Part shown: positions 12,252 through 59,328 of the stretch, one piece after another
Position numbering within the stretch: the first letter of the stretch is position 1
Layout of the letters: each line of letters opens with the position of its first letter
DNA from: Bacillus sp. FJAT-45350
Lineage (GTDB): Bacteria > Bacillota > Bacilli > Bacillales > NISU01
Assembly: GCF_002335805.1 (NCBI RefSeq)
Contig: NZ_NISU01000002.1
Coordinates: 200,838 to 264,837, forward strand
DNA length: 64,000 nt
Direction of reading: 5' to 3'
Program-made: the position numbers and the translations under genes
Notes under the pieces: model-generated
Told to the model about the DNA's origin: nothing
Databases searched by the model: none
The model's input: only the letters and a program-made list of their open reading frames with translations

Positions 12252-12259
12252 TTAGAAAG

Positions 12260-12291
12260 AAAAAAGGTTGCACTATACCTTTTTTCTTTCT
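12260..12291. repeat. 32-bp hairpin terminator, first of two identical copies
   Basis: AAAAAAGGT and ACCTTTTTT flank a short loop to give a terminator for yuiC. The same 32 bases recur exactly at 12405-12436, on the other side of a structured repeat element. Confidence 0.85.
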
Positions 12292-12295
12292 CACT

Positions 12296-12404
12296 AAGCG
12301 GTGAGCGTAGTCGTTGTAATGTTTTAAGCCATTAGGAGTGGTTTTCTCCTAATGGCGCACAACGAACGGAGCCATCGCCATCATTGAGAGACCTAAAGGG
12401 ATAC
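12296..12404 (-). ncRNA. Structured repeat element, copy C
   Basis: Read on the minus strand, this carries the conserved blocks ATGGCTCCGT, GCGCC and TTAAAA. The outer stem is TCGTTGT/ACAACGA (12359-12365 with 12311-12317). The inner stem is an 11-bp perfect hairpin (12328-12338 with 12346-12356) with loop AAAACCA. Stem sequences differ from copies A and B but pairing is kept. It lies about 90 bases after the stop of the minus-strand gene at 12493-13296 and is flanked by two identical 32-bp terminators. Transcription is inferred. Confidence 0.6.
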
Positions 12405-12436
12405 AAAAAAGGTTGCACTATACCTTTTTTCTTTCT
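12405..12436. repeat. 32-bp hairpin terminator, second identical copy
   Basis: Exact direct repeat of 12260-12291, 113 bp further on. Confidence 0.9.
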
Positions 12437-12440
12437 AACT

Positions 12441-12481
12441 AACAAAGAAGCATGCAGTTACTCACTACATGCTTCTTTGTT
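12441..12481. terminator. Terminator of the cobalamin-binding-type gene
   Basis: A 14-bp perfect stem, AACAAAGAAGCATG/CATGCTTCTTTGTT, just after the stop of the minus-strand gene. Confidence 0.75.
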
Positions 12482-13349: not shown

Positions 13350-13515
13350 TAAAGAGATTTTTACAAAAGGCCCGTTTTTGACCTTTTGTCCAAGTCTTGA
13401 AGCAATGAGAGAAGTCACTACCTCTTTTAAAAGGCTTGAAAGGGGTGGGTTTCTCCTTTCAAGGCGCGTAGCGAACGGATCCCATTGCCCTCTCTATTGA
13501 AGACTTGTGTACCAA
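13350..13515 (-). ncRNA. Structured repeat element, copy A
   Basis: On the minus strand it begins near ACACAAGTCTTCAATAG (about 13508) and contains GGGCAATGGGATCCGTTCG, GCGCC, a 9-bp hairpin (13435-13443 with 13455-13463) with GAAACCCA in the loop, then TTTTAAAA. An outer stem pairs TCGCTAC (13474-13468) with GTAGTGA (13421-13415), including a G-U pair that exists only in minus-strand RNA. A hairpin ACAAAAGG/CCTTTTGT (13363-13389) closes the end. It starts right after the yuiD stop. Identity with copy B is high through the core. Confidence 0.65.
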
Positions 13516-13530
13516 CCTCTTCTGAATGTA

Positions 13531-14692: not shown

Positions 14693-16192
14693 ATGTATAG
14701 TGTAAAACAAGGTTCGGAATTATTGTCAAATAAATCTGACGCATTAGTAATTGGTTTATTTGAAAATGAACAATATGAACAATTTGAGGAATTGAACGAA
14801 AAATTTGATGGTGGTTTAAAAAGTTTAGTTGAAGACGGTTCAATCAAGACTAAAGCGAAAGAAGTAGCAAGTCTTTTTACATTTGGAAAAATAAATGCAA
14901 AAAAGCTATACTTCGTTGGTCTTGGCTCTAAAGAAAAAGTTACAAATGAAATAGTTCGTGAAGCTATTGCAAAAGTATTCAAACAAATACATAAAGAACA
15001 ACTGACATCAGTGGCAGTCGATATTGATTCATTTTTAAAAGAGGAAGATGCGGCTGAAGAGGTGGCTCATATTCTTTCTGAGGTAATTGGTTTGACATCA
15101 TATCAAGTAGCAACTTATAAACAAGAGCAAAAGGATACTGAAAGTAAGCTAGAAGCAGTTGAGGTTCTAACAGACTTAGATGTTGAATTGATTGGAGATA
15201 GTCTTGAAAGAGGAAGAGTTTATGCAAACGGAACGAATTATGCTAGACATTTAGTTAATACACCGGGTAATAAGCTTACACCAACAGATTTGGCTGAAGA
15301 AGCAAAAATTATTGCAGAGCGTCATGGTATGGAAATTTCAGTTTTAGAGAAAAAAGAGATGGAAGAGTTAGGAATGGGTGCGTTATTATCTGTAGCAATG
15401 GGTAGTGACCAACCGCCAAAAATGATTGTCCTTAAATATCAAGGAAGAGAAACTTGGGACAATGTATTAGCTTATGTAGGTAAAGGATTAACGTTTGATG
15501 CTGGTGGAATATCAATCAAACCAAGCGCAGACATGCACCAAATGAAAATGGATATGGGTGGAGCTGCAGCTGTTCTCGGTGCGATGGATGTCATTGGTGA
15601 GCAAAAGCCTGAGGTAAATGTTCTTGCAGTAATTCCATCATCAGAAAACCTACTGAATGGTTCAGCTCTAAAACCTGGAGATGTGATCCATTCATTAAGT
15701 GGAAAAACAATTGAGGTACGCAATACAGATGCAGAAGGTCGTTTAATTCTTGCGGACGGAATTACGTATGCAAAGCAATTAGGCGCAGATTACTTAGTTG
15801 ATGTTGCTACATTAACAGGAGCATGTCTAGTTGCATTTGGCGAACATACAACAGGTTCAGTAACAAATAATGAAGAAATGTTTGAAGAATTGCTATTATC
15901 TTCAGCTGATGCAGGGGAACGAGTATGGCGTTTACCAAATGATGATGTCTACAAAGAAATGTTAAAAACAAGTGATGTTGCAGATTTAAATAACTCTCCA
16001 GGTAGAATGGCAGGTACAATTACGGCAGGTCTATTCCTAGGCGAATTTGCAGGGGAAACACCTTGGGTACATCTAGACATCGCCGGAACTGCCTGGGCAT
16101 CACAAGCAACAAGCTTCGGACCAAAAGGCGGAACAGGCTCAATGGTAAGAACACTAGCTAACTTAGCAGAAGAATTTACTTTGCAAAAATAA
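14693..16192 (+). CDS. pepA: Leucyl aminopeptidase (M17, YuiE)
   Basis: This 499-residue cytosolic aminopeptidase removes N-terminal residues from peptides using two metal ions. Active-site blocks are VGKGLTFDAGG, MKMDMGGAAAV and the M17 signature NTDAEGRLILAD. The length matches family members. ATG 14693 has aggag 7 bases upstream; an ATG six bases earlier is too close to it. It corresponds to yuiE of B. subtilis, in the same order. Confidence 0.94.
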   Translation: MYSVKQGSELLSNKSDALVIGLFENEQYEQFEELNEKFDGGLKSLVEDGSIKTKAKEVASLFTFGKINAKKLYFVGLGSKEKVTNEIVREAIAKVFKQIHKEQLTSVAVDIDSFLKEEDAAEEVAHILSEVIGLTSYQVATYKQEQKDTESKLEAVEVLTDLDVELIGDSLERGRVYANGTNYARHLVNTPGNKLTPTDLAEEAKIIAERHGMEISVLEKKEMEELGMGALLSVAMGSDQPPKMIVLKYQGRETWDNVLAYVGKGLTFDAGGISIKPSADMHQMKMDMGGAAAVLGAMDVIGEQKPEVNVLAVIPSSENLLNGSALKPGDVIHSLSGKTIEVRNTDAEGRLILADGITYAKQLGADYLVDVATLTGACLVAFGEHTTGSVTNNEEMFEELLLSSADAGERVWRLPNDDVYKEMLKTSDVADLNNSPGRMAGTITAGLFLGEFAGETPWVHLDIAGTAWASQATSFGPKGGTGSMVRTLANLAEEFTLQK

Positions 16193-16430
16193 TTATGAAT
16201 TATGAGTTATAAAGTATGAATGGAAAACCTTATAAAACCTTAACAAACGCTTAGAGACTAAACCCTCTAAGCGTTTGTTTTTTTCAAAGGCTATCTCTGT
16301 CATTATCAATTTTCTCGATCAACTATCTACCAATTAATCATTAACCACTAACCATTAACCATTAACCATTAACCATTCGCCCTTCAATTCATAACTCATA
16401 ACTCATAATTCATAATTAACTACATAGTAT
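16193..16430. repeat. AT-rich dispersed repeat with inverted ends and TAACCAT tandem units
   Basis: Units of the form TTATGAATTATGAGTTAT start directly after the pepA stop. Their complement, TTCATAACTCATAACTCATAA, recurs at about 16387-16425, so the two ends can pair over 200 bases. Between them lie the pepA terminator (16242-16284) and about five tandem TAACCAT heptamers (16336-16376). Related blocks occur at 31370, 52970, 58604 and 58745. Confidence 0.75.
16242..16284 (+). terminator. Terminator of pepA
   Basis: AACAAACGCTTAGAG pairs with CTCTAAGCGTTTGTT, followed by a T-tract. Confidence 0.9.
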
Positions 16431-36858: not shown

Positions 36859-37015
36859 AACGAACAAACGAATGGGAGTTTAAAGCAAAACATTTATTGG
36901 GATTCCTCTCGCAGTTGGTACGATACTAAATATAAATTGATATTTTTAAATATTTCCATTATCATAAAGGTAGAAACTAGTAAAAAGTTTCTATGAATTA
37001 ACTATAAATAATTTT
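36859..37015. other. AT-rich spacer before the riboswitch
   Basis: No gene or terminator is clear here; the riboswitch promoter should lie in this stretch. Confidence 0.4.
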
Positions 37016-37195
37016 TGGAATTCTAGGTGTCTAATAGACTTAATAGGGAATCTGGTGGAAATCCAGAGCTGTCCCCGCAACTGTAAGTGTGGATGAAATG
37101 AGAAACCACTGTATAAGTAACTTTACCGGTGCTTATACGGGAAGGCTCAGAGTAAGAAGAAGCACGAGTCAGGAGACCTGCCTAACTTCCATAAG
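37016..37195 (+). promoter_or_regulatory. Cobalamin (B12) riboswitch
   Basis: The B12-box elements appear in order: AATAGGGAA, GGTGGAAATCC, AGCTGTCCCCGCAACTGTAA, GGGAAGGC and GAGTCAGGAGACCTGCC. The distal T-rich hairpin at 37225-37272 is the likely expression platform. It controls the [2Fe-2S] protein gene at 37335. Confidence 0.95.
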
Positions 37196-37224
37196 TTTCA
37201 TTTCTTCGGGGTGAGAGAAGTTGA

Positions 37225-44724: not shown

Positions 44725-45030
44725 TTATTGAATGAAAGTAGGAAGGATTTACGTCTTATGCAGAAATGCGTGGGACGTTTTTTTTTTGCTTAGGAAATAA
44801 AAAAATACTTAAGCTGTGGATAAGTGAAGATTATTCAAAGAAGGGCAATGGTTCCGCGCACTACGAGTATAGCGCCAAGAAACCCACTTGTCACTATACT
44901 TTAAAACATATCACTGGCTTCGCACATAACTTTAAACAAGATGGCTTTGAGGTTTTTTGTTCTTTTGTATAAAGTTTCTGAATTTTGTCTAAGTTAGCTA
45001 GTATTCAGAATTTAATAGAGGAGAGAAAAA
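44725..45030. other. Intergenic region after phaJ
   Basis: This 306-bp gap contains a diverged copy of the structured repeat (about 44843-44925). The only open frame here (44766-44972) covers that repeat and is not credible as a gene. Confidence 0.6.
44843..44925 (+). ncRNA. Structured repeat element, copy D (diverged)
   Basis: In order on the plus strand: GGGCAATGGTTCCG, GCGCC (44872-44876), AGAAACCCA and TTTAAAA (44900-44906), the same order as copies A-C. The stem is AGTATAG (44867-44873) with CTATACT (44894-44900), a different position from the outer stem in the other copies, plus a short CAAG/CTTG. It lies 120 bases after phaJ, on the same strand. Confidence 0.5.
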
Positions 45031-50169: not shown

Positions 50170-50315
50170 GGACACAAGTCTTCAATAGAGGGTGCAATGG
50201 GCTCCGTTCGCTATGCGCCTTGAAAGGAGAAACCCAGTCCTTTCAAGGCTTTTAAAAGATGTAGCGATGCGAAGCTGGGACAAAAGGTACCTTTTGTTCC
50301 AGCTTCTTTTTAATG
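50170..50315 (+). ncRNA. Structured repeat element, copy B
   Basis: It starts GGACACAAGTCTTCAATAG and contains GCAATGGGCTCCGTTCG and GCGCC. A perfect 12-bp hairpin follows (50217-50228 with 50238-50249) with loop GAAACCCAG, then TTTTAAAA. The outer stem is TCGCTA (50208-50213) with TAGCGA (50262-50267). It ends in a strong terminator, GAAGCTGG...CCAGCTTC plus five T (50271-50313), that also serves convergent ytlD. It lies 85 bases after ytkD on the same strand. Confidence 0.7.
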
Positions 50316-52878: not shown

Positions 52879-53086
52879 TCTACTTTTCTCTCCTTTCAAA
52901 CCTGTAGATAGGATAGTGTATGAAAGAGAGTAGTAATGTGTGTTTGCCCAGAGGGGGGAGAATTGAAATTCAAAATTATGAGTTATGAGTTATGAATTTG
53001 TGCTTTTAAATTTGTGGGAATTTTCTTTTCTCTTGGCAATTTGCAATTCTAAATTTTTCATTAAAAAAAACAGTCTAGGCGGAAAG
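52879..53086. other. Region between ytlA and the IS element
   Basis: It contains the ytlA promoter, an AT-rich repeat block (AAAATTATGAGTTATGAGTT near 52972) and the left half of the split pckA terminator (53062-53080). No gene seen. Confidence 0.5.
53078..53086. repeat. Target-site duplication, left copy
   Basis: GGCGGAAAG directly left of the IS end; the same nine bases flank the right end. Confidence 0.85.
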
Positions 53087-53114
53087 GAGGCCACTGAAAA
53101 AGTCTCTATATTAT

Positions 53115-53162
53115 AAAAAAAAGATATAGTACCTCAAAATTTGAGAGTGCTATATCTTTTTT
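53115..53162. terminator. Left inward-facing terminator of the IS
   Basis: AAAGATATAG...CTCAAA pairs with TTTGAG...CTATATCTTT, with A-run and T-run on the two sides. Confidence 0.8.
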
Positions 53163-53202
53163 ACTGTATAATTAAATTATCAAATTCGAGTGGGTGGATA
53201 CA

Positions 53203-54651
53203 TTGATTCAACATCAACAAGTAAATTTAAGTCCTTATATGGCGATTTATGACATAGTCGTACCGAAAGATAATGTTTTGAGAAAAATAAATGACTTAGT
53301 CGATTTTTCTTTTGTATATGAAGAATTAGTAGATAAATATTGCCTTGATAATGGGCGTAATGCGATCCATCCTATTCGCATGTTCAAATACTTATTATTA
53401 AAATGTATCCACAACGTATCCGATGTTGATATTGTCGAACGCTCAAAATATGATATGTCATTCAAATATTTTTTAGATATGGCGCCAGAAGATCCAGTTA
53501 TTGAGCCAAGTTCCTTAACGAAGTTTCGAAAACTGCGATTAAAGGATGTAAATTTATTAGACATGCTAATCAATAAAACGGTTGAGATCGCAATCGAAAA
53601 AGAAATTATAAAAAGCAAATCTATTATTGTAGATGCTACCCATACCCAGTCTCGTTACAATCAAAAATCAGCCAAAGAAGTGCTGGTTGATCGGTCTAAA
53701 AACCTAAGAAAGACGATTTATCAAGTAGATGAAACAATGAAAAGTAAATTTCCAACCAAGACAACATCAGATGTATTAGAAGATCAAATTGAATACTGTG
53801 AAAAGCTGATTAAAGTCATTGAAAAAGAAGAGGTTATTTGTGAATTCCCCAAAGTAAAAGAAAAATTAAACCTGCTTAAAGAAACTGTGGCTGATGATAT
53901 TGAACATCTACAATTATCCAAAGATGAAGACGCAAAAACAGGACATAAAACAGTGGACTCCTCATTCTTTGGTTACAAAACACACATAGCCTTAAGCGAA
54001 GAAAGAATTATTACTGCGGCTGTTGTTACAACTGGAGAAAAGAATGACGGAAAGCAATTAGAAACCTTAATTGAAAAAAGTATGGAAGCTGGTATGGAAG
54101 TTGATACTGTGATTGGTGATGCCGCCTATTCAGAAAAAGGGAATATTGAATATACAAAAACAAACGAAATGAAGTTAATAGCTAAACTCAACCCTGTTGT
54201 CACACAAGGTAACCGAAAAAAAGAAGACGAATTTGAGTTTAATAAAGATGCTAGTATGTATGTTTGTAAGGCTGGACATATGGCTATTAGGAAAGCACGA
54301 ACTGGAAAAAAAGGTGTAGCCACAAATCAAACACACACATATTACTTTAATGTAGAAAAATGTAAGGTATGTCCTATAAAAGAAGGATGTTATAAAGATG
54401 GAGCTAAAAGTAAGACTTATTCTGTGAGCATTAAATCGAATATACACAAAGAACAAATAGCCTTTCAAGAAAGCGATTATTTTAAAGAAAAATCAAAAGA
54501 AAGATATAAAATTGAAGCAAAAAACAGTGAATTAAAACACCGACACGGGTATGATGTAGCATCATCTTCGGGTCTTATTGGCATGGAACTACAAGGAGCT
54601 ATGTCGATATTTACAGTTAATTTGAAAAGGATTTTGAAGTTAATAGGTTAA
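53203..54651 (+). CDS. IS1182 family transposase
   Basis: This 482-residue DDE transposase has an N-terminal DUF772 domain (YELVDKYCLDNGRNAIHPIR, read from VYEELVDKY) and catalytic acids in IIVDATHTQSR, VIGDAAYSEKG and YKIEAKNSELKHRHG. Cysteine pairs (CKVCPIKEGC) precede the last acid. No stop or frameshift, so it may be active. TTG 53203 has gggtgg 5 bases upstream; GTG 53194 is possible. Confidence 0.92.
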   Translation: MIQHQQVNLSPYMAIYDIVVPKDNVLRKINDLVDFSFVYEELVDKYCLDNGRNAIHPIRMFKYLLLKCIHNVSDVDIVERSKYDMSFKYFLDMAPEDPVIEPSSLTKFRKLRLKDVNLLDMLINKTVEIAIEKEIIKSKSIIVDATHTQSRYNQKSAKEVLVDRSKNLRKTIYQVDETMKSKFPTKTTSDVLEDQIEYCEKLIKVIEKEEVICEFPKVKEKLNLLKETVADDIEHLQLSKDEDAKTGHKTVDSSFFGYKTHIALSEERIITAAVVTTGEKNDGKQLETLIEKSMEAGMEVDTVIGDAAYSEKGNIEYTKTNEMKLIAKLNPVVTQGNRKKEDEFEFNKDASMYVCKAGHMAIRKARTGKKGVATNQTHTYYFNVEKCKVCPIKEGCYKDGAKSKTYSVSIKSNIHKEQIAFQESDYFKEKSKERYKIEAKNSELKHRHGYDVASSSGLIGMELQGAMSIFTVNLKRILKLIG

Positions 54652-54682
54652 CTAAATGAAAAATTTAGCTCTACATAAAATA

Positions 54683-54733
54683 AAAAAGAGACGAATACAC
54701 CCATTTAATGGATATAATTTCGTCTCTTTTTTA
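54683..54733. terminator. Right terminator of the IS
   Basis: AAAAGAGACGAA/TTCGTCTCTTTT, symmetrical; on the minus strand it can stop pckA transcripts. Confidence 0.85.
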
Positions 54734-54779
54734 TTTCTCATTCTTTCGTCTCAAAAAACGGAAGTTTTTCAGTGGCCTC

Positions 54780-54788
54780 GGCGGAAAG
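54780..54788. repeat. Target-site duplication, right copy
   Basis: GGCGGAAAG, identical to 53078-53086; the following CCTTGACTGTT is the other arm of the original terminator. Confidence 0.85.
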
Positions 54789-56978: not shown

Positions 56979-57090
56979 CTCTTATCCCGAGTTGGTGGAG
57001 GGACAGGCCCTATGAAACCCAGCAACCTACATCTAGATATAGATGGTAAGGTGCTAACCTGCAAGACATTTGTCTTGACCGATAAGAGGC
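56979..57090 (+). promoter_or_regulatory. SAM-I (S-box) riboswitch
   Basis: The S-box core is complete: CTTATCCCGAGTTGGTGGAG, GGGAC-AGGCCCTATGAAACCC, AGCAACC, AAGGTGCTAA and GATAAGAG. It controls metK through the terminator that follows. Confidence 0.96.
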
Positions 57091-58603: not shown

Positions 58604-58812
58604 AATTATGAATGATGAGTTATGAGTTATAAATTGCAAATTTAGAATTGCAAATTAATATGGCAATTCAAGCACAATTAAAGTGAGTAGGGAATGAAGC
58701 CAAAAAATAAAAGCTTGGCTAAATAAGTCAGCCAAGCTTTAAGAATTCCAATTTGCCATTAGCAATTAGCAATTCGAATTTTGCCATTTAATTCATAACT
58801 CATAACTCATAA
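58604..58812. repeat. AT-rich dispersed repeat with inverted ends
   Basis: TTATGAATGATGAGTTATGA at the left is the complement of TTCATAACTCATAACTCATA at the right (about 58790-58812). AATTGCAAATT-type units occur inside both arms. The ytoA terminator lies in the middle. Confidence 0.7.
58702..58740 (-). terminator. Terminator of ytoA
   Basis: AAAGCTTGGCT/AGCCAAGCTTT, with a T-rich run on the minus-strand side. Confidence 0.8.
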
Positions 58813-59328
58813 TTATTTCTTCTGAAGGCTCTTATACCACTGCCCCTTCTCCACATATTCTCGTCTGATTCTTGCCATGTCTTTTCGGTCTTCGTCGTTT
58901 AATTCTCTAACGACTTTGGCAGGTCTTCCGAAGGCAAGGGAGTTTGGTGGAATTTTCTTACCTTGTGGTACTAGACTTCCTGCTCCGATAAAGGCTCCTT
59001 CACCAACTTCTGCTCCGTCTAATACGATAGAGCCCATACCAATGAGACTATTTTTCTTTAGAGTACAGCTATGTAGGATTACTTGATGTCCGACAGTGAC
59101 GTCGTCTTCGATGATCATCGAACATCGTGGGCTTTGATGAACGATTGAGTTATCTTGAATATTTACGCGGTCTCCTATTATTGTTGGGGATACATCTCCA
59201 CGAATCACAGTGTTGAACCACACGCTCGACTCTTCGCCAATGGTGACATCTCCTGTTACAGTAGCGTAATCAGCAATAAAGGCACTTTCTGCAATGACAG
59301 GTGTCTTTCCTCCGTAAGGGTAAATCAT
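58813..59328 (-). CDS. ytoA: Gamma-carbonic anhydrase-like hexapeptide protein (YtoA)
   Basis: The 171-residue left-handed beta-helix protein has hexapeptide repeats and histidines in SIVHQSPR and VGHQVILHSC matching the zinc sites of gamma-carbonic anhydrases. Activity is not certain. ATG 59328 follows aaaggattg; the longer frame from 59445 would add 39 residues outside the fold. Confidence 0.9.
   Translation of the reverse strand: MIYPYGGKTPVIAESAFIADYATVTGDVTIGEESSVWFNTVIRGDVSPTIIGDRVNIQDNSIVHQSPRCSMIIEDDVTVGHQVILHSCTLKKNSLIGMGSIVLDGAEVGEGAFIGAGSLVPQGKKIPPNSLAFGRPAKVVRELNDEDRKDMARIRREYVEKGQWYKSLQKK

What the first reader, a model, noticed from the sequence alone, without database searches (positions are those of the whole stretch)
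13350..13515. Dispersed structured RNA-like element: copies A and B share core and pairing
Copy A (13350-13515, minus strand) and copy B (50170-50315, plus strand) are alike over about 150 bases. Both carry CAATGGG-TCCGTTCGCTA, GCGCC, a hairpin with GAAACCCA in the loop, and TTTTAAAA. The outer stem differs (TCGCTAC/GTAGTGA against TCGCTA/TAGCGA) but pairs in both, and the G-U pair in A exists only in RNA from the minus strand. Copy B ends in a strong terminator. I know no described RNA with this core, though I could not search.
Basis: partly seen in the sequence, partly recalled or inferred. Interest (0 to 1): 0.85.

Follow-up and report, generated by a model that had tools for sequence, protein, structure and literature searches.

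The report
Mobile folding DNA that replaces terminators
The repeated 'RNA-like' pieces are copies of a short jumping DNA element with a conserved fold; it is scattered by the hundred through alkaline-loving Bacillus relatives, settles in the stop signals at gene ends, and brings its own stop signal with it.

Summary
Copies A and B match over 109 nt at 89%, and a covariance model finds two more copies in the window, 137 in the genome and 48-149 in each of six Halalkalibacter genomes. None is in Rfam. Compensatory changes are very strong (26 of 29 pairs). The RNA reading fails, however. G·U pairs are no commoner than A·C mismatches (47:52; SAM riboswitches from the same genomes give 52:5), both strands fold equally well, and copies lie sense or antisense to genes equally often (30:33). 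The full unit is terminal inverted repeat – spacer – 86-nt foldback core – palindromic terminator hairpin. Copies with CACTG-type ends have 8-9-bp target duplications in 10 of 16 cases, matching the size and ends of IS1182-family insertion sequences in this genome, one of them in the window. The A/B type has no duplications. At an orthologous site, a terminator shared by two other species is missing where the element sits, which fits the stem-loop-replacing insertion described for IS1272. Best explanation: a non-autonomous IS1182-type miniature element that lives in terminators and supplies one. Why the core fold is conserved stays open, and no transposase for the A/B type was found.

The parts
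13402..13488 (-). Copy A, foldback core (P1/P2 stem, P3 hairpin, loop AAACCCA, TTTTAAAAGA bulge)
   Evidence: R1 match 90.6 bits, E 1.4e-21 (this copy was in the training set)
13502..13519 (-). Copy A, left terminal inverted repeat GAGGTTGGTACACAAGTC (T')
   Evidence: alignment with sister copies
13354..13398 (-). Copy A, right palindromic terminator-type hairpin (T), 3' arm worn
   Evidence: sequence, compared with intact T in sister copies
50194..50275 (+). Copy B, core (right leg partly deleted)
   Evidence: R1 match 64.8 bits
50163..50180 (+). Copy B, left terminal inverted repeat GAGGACGGGACACAAGTC
50271..50306 (+). Copy B, right terminator hairpin GAAGCTGGGACAAAAGGT/ACCTTTTGTTCCAGCTTC followed by TTTTT
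12298..12378 (-). Copy C, core
   Evidence: R1 match 75.8 bits, not in the training set
12255..12297 (.). Terminator hairpin on one side of copy C; 93% direct repeat of 12400-12442
   Evidence: (D3)
12400..12442 (.). Partner copy of the same hairpin on the other side of copy C
   Evidence: (D3)
44845..44930 (+). Copy D, diverged core
   Evidence: R1 match 46.2 bits, E 1e-9, not in the training set
53087..54779 (+). IS1182-family insertion sequence, ends GAGGCCACTGAAAAAGTC / ACTTTTTCAGTGGCCTC; candidate helper for CACTG-type copies
   Evidence: (I7)
53194..54651 (+). IS1182-family transposase, 485 aa
   Evidence: NF033551 360.8 bits, cut-off 270; PF05598, PF13751
53078..53086 (.). Target-site duplication GGCGGAAAG, left of the IS
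54780..54788 (.). Target-site duplication GGCGGAAAG, right of the IS

Best explanation
A family of non-autonomous miniature transposable elements (MITEs). Each unit is about 155-190 bp: left terminal inverted repeat, short spacer, 86-nt foldback core, 3 nt, then a palindromic terminator hairpin whose outer arm is the right inverted repeat. Shown: dispersal, DNA-level (not RNA-strand-specific) pairing, matching ends and duplication size with IS1182 insertion sequences for CACTG-type copies, presence/absence between species, and a shared native terminator missing at an occupied site. Inferred: IS1182-type DDE transposases recognise the ends and hairpin structure and move the unit in trans into stem-loops, mostly terminators. 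The target hairpin is replaced (no duplication, A/B type), duplicated (copy C), or entered with an 8-9-bp duplication (CACTG type). The unit's own hairpin then serves as the new terminator, which makes the insertion tolerable. Tandem arrays of core + hairpin arise secondarily, probably by replication slippage.
For: Copies: 137 in this genome, 48-149 in six Halalkalibacter genomes; 17 of 397 order-level genomes, 9 of 135 genera. Covariation 26/29 pairs, 0/500 shuffles. No G.U excess, 47:52 versus 52:5 in the SAM riboswitch. Strand-neutral folding and orientation 30 sense: 33 antisense, with divergent promoter regions avoided (8/107). CACTG-type copies: duplication of at least 7/8 in 10 of 16, against 7 of 240 mismatched flank pairs. 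IS1182 copies in this genome have the same ends and 8-9-bp duplications; IS1182 family confirmed. Empty sites: L053 element lies where two other species share an orthologous terminator; L055 element lies where three species have ordinary terminators. A-tract left (60% A) and T-tract right (65% T) of 26 copies, all but one of the no-duplication type. Precedent: IS1272 (IS1182 family) and TnSha1 insert in and delete terminator stem-loops without duplication (PMC5678879; PMC4923244).
Against: No transposase with A/B-type ends (GGGACA or GTCCC) was found: H. alkaliphilus (G062), rich in copies, has no PF13751 or PF05598 hit, and the one promising end pair in G000 (393467/394706) was a tandem array. 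Three end types with different duplication lengths (8-9 bp, 5 bp AT-rich, none) imply more than one transposase. The strong conservation of the internal core is unusual for a MITE. The orientation count rests on simple ORF calls.
Confidence: 0.72

Rival explanations
1. A functional structured RNA (3' UTR element or small RNA ending in a terminator), spread as a repeat.
For: Strong covariation, conserved loop and bulge, terminator hairpin; all four window copies lie downstream of a gene in the same direction.
Against: No G.U preference (47:52 against 52:5 in a true RNA); the complementary strand folds as well or better; in the larger set sense and antisense placements are equal.
Confidence: 0.1
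2. A REP-type element moved by a REP-associated tyrosine (Y1) transposase acting on single-stranded hairpins.
For: Foldback shape, tandem arrays, intergenic location. RAYT-like genes exist in most bearing genomes, and cores lie beside three of them.
Against: About one such adjacency is expected by chance (about 6.8% of genes adjoin a copy). H. urbisdiaboli has 110 or more copies and no Y1 gene, and copy-free genomes have RAYTs. The 8-9-bp and 5-bp target duplications and inverted ends are DDE-type, not Y1-type. No conserved GTAG: the four bases covary.
Confidence: 0.08
3. The compensatory changes are mutational, not selected: template switching between the two arms keeps the palindrome self-complementary while the unit spreads by any means. 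(Not exclusive of the best explanation.)
For: Explains G.U = A.C and the rarity of intermediates; hairpins in the arrays look like slippage products.
Against: Loop (AAACCCA/AAAACCA), the 3x3 internal loop, bulges and the unpaired TTTTAAAAGA stay conserved across several GTDB families, which arm correction alone does not explain.
Confidence: 0.25
4. Decayed pieces of one transposon end.
For: The terminal hairpins resemble IS1182 ends.
Against: Full-length units recur intact with the same core and three different end types. The model finds no core inside the window's IS1182 element.
Confidence: 0.05

Closest known systems
IS1272 / TnSha1 (IS1182 family), stem-loop-replacing transposition (PMC5678879, PMC4923244)
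   Same: Insertion into stem-loops, often terminators; target hairpin lost; no target duplication; IS1182-family elements with matching ends occur in this genome.
   Different: Those carry a transposase; here the unit is 155-190 bp, non-coding, with a conserved folding core, and brings a terminator of its own.
bcr1-bcr3 of the Bacillus cereus group (PMC3446304 and references there)
   Same: Short intergenic MITE-like repeats with secondary structure, in Bacillales.
   Different: Not compared by sequence here; no bcr sequence was at hand. bcr1 is specific to the B. cereus group according to the title of its cited description.
Bhal-1 of Bacillus halodurans (PMC2267715)
   Same: Intergenic, structured, 74 bp, 36 copies, in an alkaliphilic Bacillus.
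   Different: Its sequence is not in the main text, so identity could not be tested. It may be a relative.
BOX/RUP of Streptococcus pneumoniae and REP/REPIN elements
   Same: Dispersed foldback repeats thought to be moved in trans.
   Different: Described helpers differ; no RAYT link here; not compared by sequence.

Membership tests
MITE (non-autonomous DDE element) | Short, non-coding, many dispersed copies | tested here: met
MITE (non-autonomous DDE element) | Terminal inverted repeats | tested here: met
   46 of 109 distinct copies with a candidate end pair, a few of them chance pairs inside arrays; seen in all three end types; worn or absent in many others
MITE (non-autonomous DDE element) | Target-site duplications | tested here: inconclusive
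   Met for the CACTG type (10/16); 5-bp AT-rich ones read off five copies of the TTCAAAAAG type without a null test; none for the A/B type
MITE (non-autonomous DDE element) | Autonomous partner with the same ends | tested here: inconclusive
   Found for the CACTG type; not found for the A/B type
IS1182/IS1272-style stem-loop replacement | Target hairpin present in the empty allele, lost in the occupied one, no duplication | tested here: met
   One clear site (L053), one consistent (L055), one ambiguous (L047)
REP/RAYT system | RAYT gene present and flanked by the repeat | tested here: not met
   absent in H. urbisdiaboli; adjacency near the chance level
REP/RAYT system | Conserved 5' GTAG tetranucleotide | tested here: not met
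   GTAG/GCAG/ACAG/GCAA variants covary with the other arm
Structured RNA family | Compensatory changes | tested here: met
Structured RNA family | G.U tolerated over A.C on the transcribed strand | tested here: not met
   47:52 against 52:5 in the SAM riboswitch
Structured RNA family | Match to a described family | tested here: not met
bcr1 / Bhal-1 | Sequence identity with the named repeat | not testable with these tools
   their sequences were not seen in the passages read from the two papers

The most novel reading that the evidence does not exclude
The 86-nt core is a DNA-structure module, read as a cruciform or single-strand hairpin by structure-sensitive transposases, that several different end types have adopted. 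It would let one cargo be moved by different transposases and aim itself at terminators: a modular, transposase-swapping miniature element.
Probability: 0.25. Interest if true: 0.78.

Novelty: new variant of a known kind. Interest (0 to 1): 0.55.

Why it matters
It shows a large, apparently undescribed repeat family that rewrites gene ends across several Bacillales families, and it extends stem-loop-replacing transposition from single insertion sequences to mass-spread miniature elements. It also gives a clean warning: very strong compensatory variation, the usual gold standard for a functional RNA, can come from a DNA element. The G·U : A·C ratio is a simple test that tells the two apart.

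Tried and rejected
Rfam at gathering and permissive thresholds: only chance-level hits. Plasmid and phage collections: no match. Y1/RAYT transposase as mover: adjacency looked suggestive (3 of about 17 genes), but about 1.1 is expected by chance and one copy-rich genome has no Y1 gene. Autonomous A/B-type insertion sequence: searched by Pfam families and by end-pair pattern; the only end pair at the right distance was a tandem array of about ten units. 3'-UTR function: four of four window copies are sense to the upstream gene, but this vanished in the larger set.

Full report
OBSERVATION. Copies A and B are real: 109 nt ungapped at 89%, with core words that occur only at these two places and are not expected by chance. 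A blastn search of the genome in which the window lies gave 40 local matches. Aligned copies show a common core and a variable right-hand hairpin. Permissive Rfam searches found nothing.

DISTRIBUTION. An exact-pattern scan of 84,980 species genomes returned 19 stretches, all in the genus Halalkalibacter (six species). The pattern is strict and misses diverged copies. A covariance model built from 26 cores (R1; 86 positions, 29 pairs) found 137 copies in the window's genome and 48-149 in six Halalkalibacter genomes; the tool scores at most 150 candidates per genome. It found copies in 17 of 397 genomes drawn from the order, 9 of 135 genera, in at least five GTDB families (f1, f3, f6, f26, f45). 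The window holds four copies: A, B, C (12298-12378, minus) and D (44845-44930, plus); C and D were not in the training set.

FOLD. On 107 distinct sequences, 94.6% of cells pair, 26 of 29 pairs show changes on both sides (17.1 in shuffles), the covariation score is 0.377 (0.138 shuffled; at most 0.085 when slid), and no shuffle reaches the observed values. That alignment was fitted to the structure. The MAFFT-only alignment A1 gives the same result on 26 sequences.

RNA OR DNA. At paired positions G·U cells (47) do not exceed A·C cells (52), in the own genome (19:22) or elsewhere (28:30). As a yardstick, 28 SAM riboswitches from the same genomes gave 52:5, and 34:0 outside one variable helix (counted; Fisher p about 1e-8). 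Both strands of the core fold equally well as DNA and as RNA. Among 107 copies with a gene called on both sides, 36 lie between converging genes, 30 are sense to two co-directional genes, 33 are antisense to two, and 8 lie between diverging genes. The element therefore sits at gene 3' ends but has no preferred transcribed strand. The simplest reading is that pairing is kept at the DNA level, by selection or by arm-to-arm correction.

ANATOMY. With flanks displayed the unit reads: left inverted repeat (T') – spacer – core – 3 nt – palindromic hairpin (T). T differs between lineages (GAGGCTGGGACAAAAGGTC…, GGGGGTGTCTCAAAAGGTC…, GAGGTTGTTCAAAAAGGT…, GAGGGCACTGAAAAAGTG…), and T' changes with it. 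Arrays of core + hairpin occur. Solitary T hairpins also occur.

MOBILITY. The window carries an IS1182-family insertion sequence at 53087-54779 (NF033551, 360.8 bits, cut-off 270), one of several in this genome, with ends GAGGCCACTGAAAAAGT and 8-9-bp duplications (GGCGGAAAG in the window; GGTTCCCC, GAATATTT and others elsewhere). Core-bearing units with the same kind of ends have duplications of at least 7/8 in 10 of 16 cases; mismatched flanks give 7 of 240. One such unit lies in this genome, in the loop of an A/B-type hairpin (TGTTTTTG on both sides). Units of the TTCAAAAAG type show 5-bp AT-rich repeats in five copies (read by eye; no null computed). A/B-type units show none, but lie between an A-rich left flank (60%) and a T-rich right flank (65%) (one of the 26 units counted there, L016, is of the TTCAAAAAG type), as if a terminator hairpin had been cut out. 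Window copy C lies between two direct copies of a 43-bp hairpin.

EMPTY SITES. At the L053 site (H. wakoensis) the two species H. alkaliphilus and H. okhensis share an orthologous terminator (AAAAGCGAGG…CCTCGCTTACTTTTTT); in H. wakoensis it is missing and the element stands there without duplication. At the L055 site (H. alkaliphilus) three other species each have an ordinary terminator. At the L047 site H. alkaliphilus has a worn copy, i.e. a shared older insertion, and H. wakoensis a simple hairpin.

MECHANISM. Wan et al. 2017 (PMC5678879) and the 2016 paper on TnSha1 (PMC4923244) describe IS1272, an IS1182-family member, and TnSha1 inserting into stem-loops, many of them terminators, deleting them, without duplication. 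Wan et al. also model variants in which the whole stem-loop or the loop is duplicated. All three outcomes resemble what is seen here. I infer that IS1182-type transposases move these units in trans. For the CACTG type this rests on shared ends and duplication size; for the A/B type no helper was found, so it rests on analogy.

WHAT STAYS OPEN. Why a MITE keeps an internal fold with conserved loop and bulges across several families and at least three end types is not explained. Either the core is a structural signal for transposition, or it is old cargo kept palindromic by template switching. The present data do not separate these.

Noticed in passing
window 37007-37199 (+) and 56979-57088 (+): Cobalamin riboswitch (111.7 bits) and SAM riboswitch (75.6 bits), both over Rfam's gathering scores.
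   Followed up: no
window 16187-16418, 52967-52998, 58604-58656, 58756-58826: A second dispersed repeat, AT-rich (AATTATGAATTATGAGTTATGAATT), in both orientations between genes; unrelated in sequence to the present element.
   Followed up: no
L246:670-1930 (G000:C1:393467-394706): About ten-unit tandem array of the CACTG-type left end + core, flanked by CCTTTTGTC on both sides, inside an A/B-type hairpin: a minisatellite made of this element.
   Followed up: partly
L148:5413-5994 (-): RAYT-like Y1 transposase gene in the window's genome with a core copy 30 bp from its 3' end; NF047646 60.4 bits, below its cut-off of 80.
   Followed up: partly
L082, L075 and L058: Miniature units or solitary T hairpins inserted in the P3 hairpin of another copy's core (for example with CTCATAGC duplicated in L082), so the core itself is a target.
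   Followed up: partly
L099:3940-4474 (G000:C2:137939-138473): Four core copies just upstream of a gene that looks like enolase from its first residues, in what is usually the glycolytic operon.
   Followed up: no
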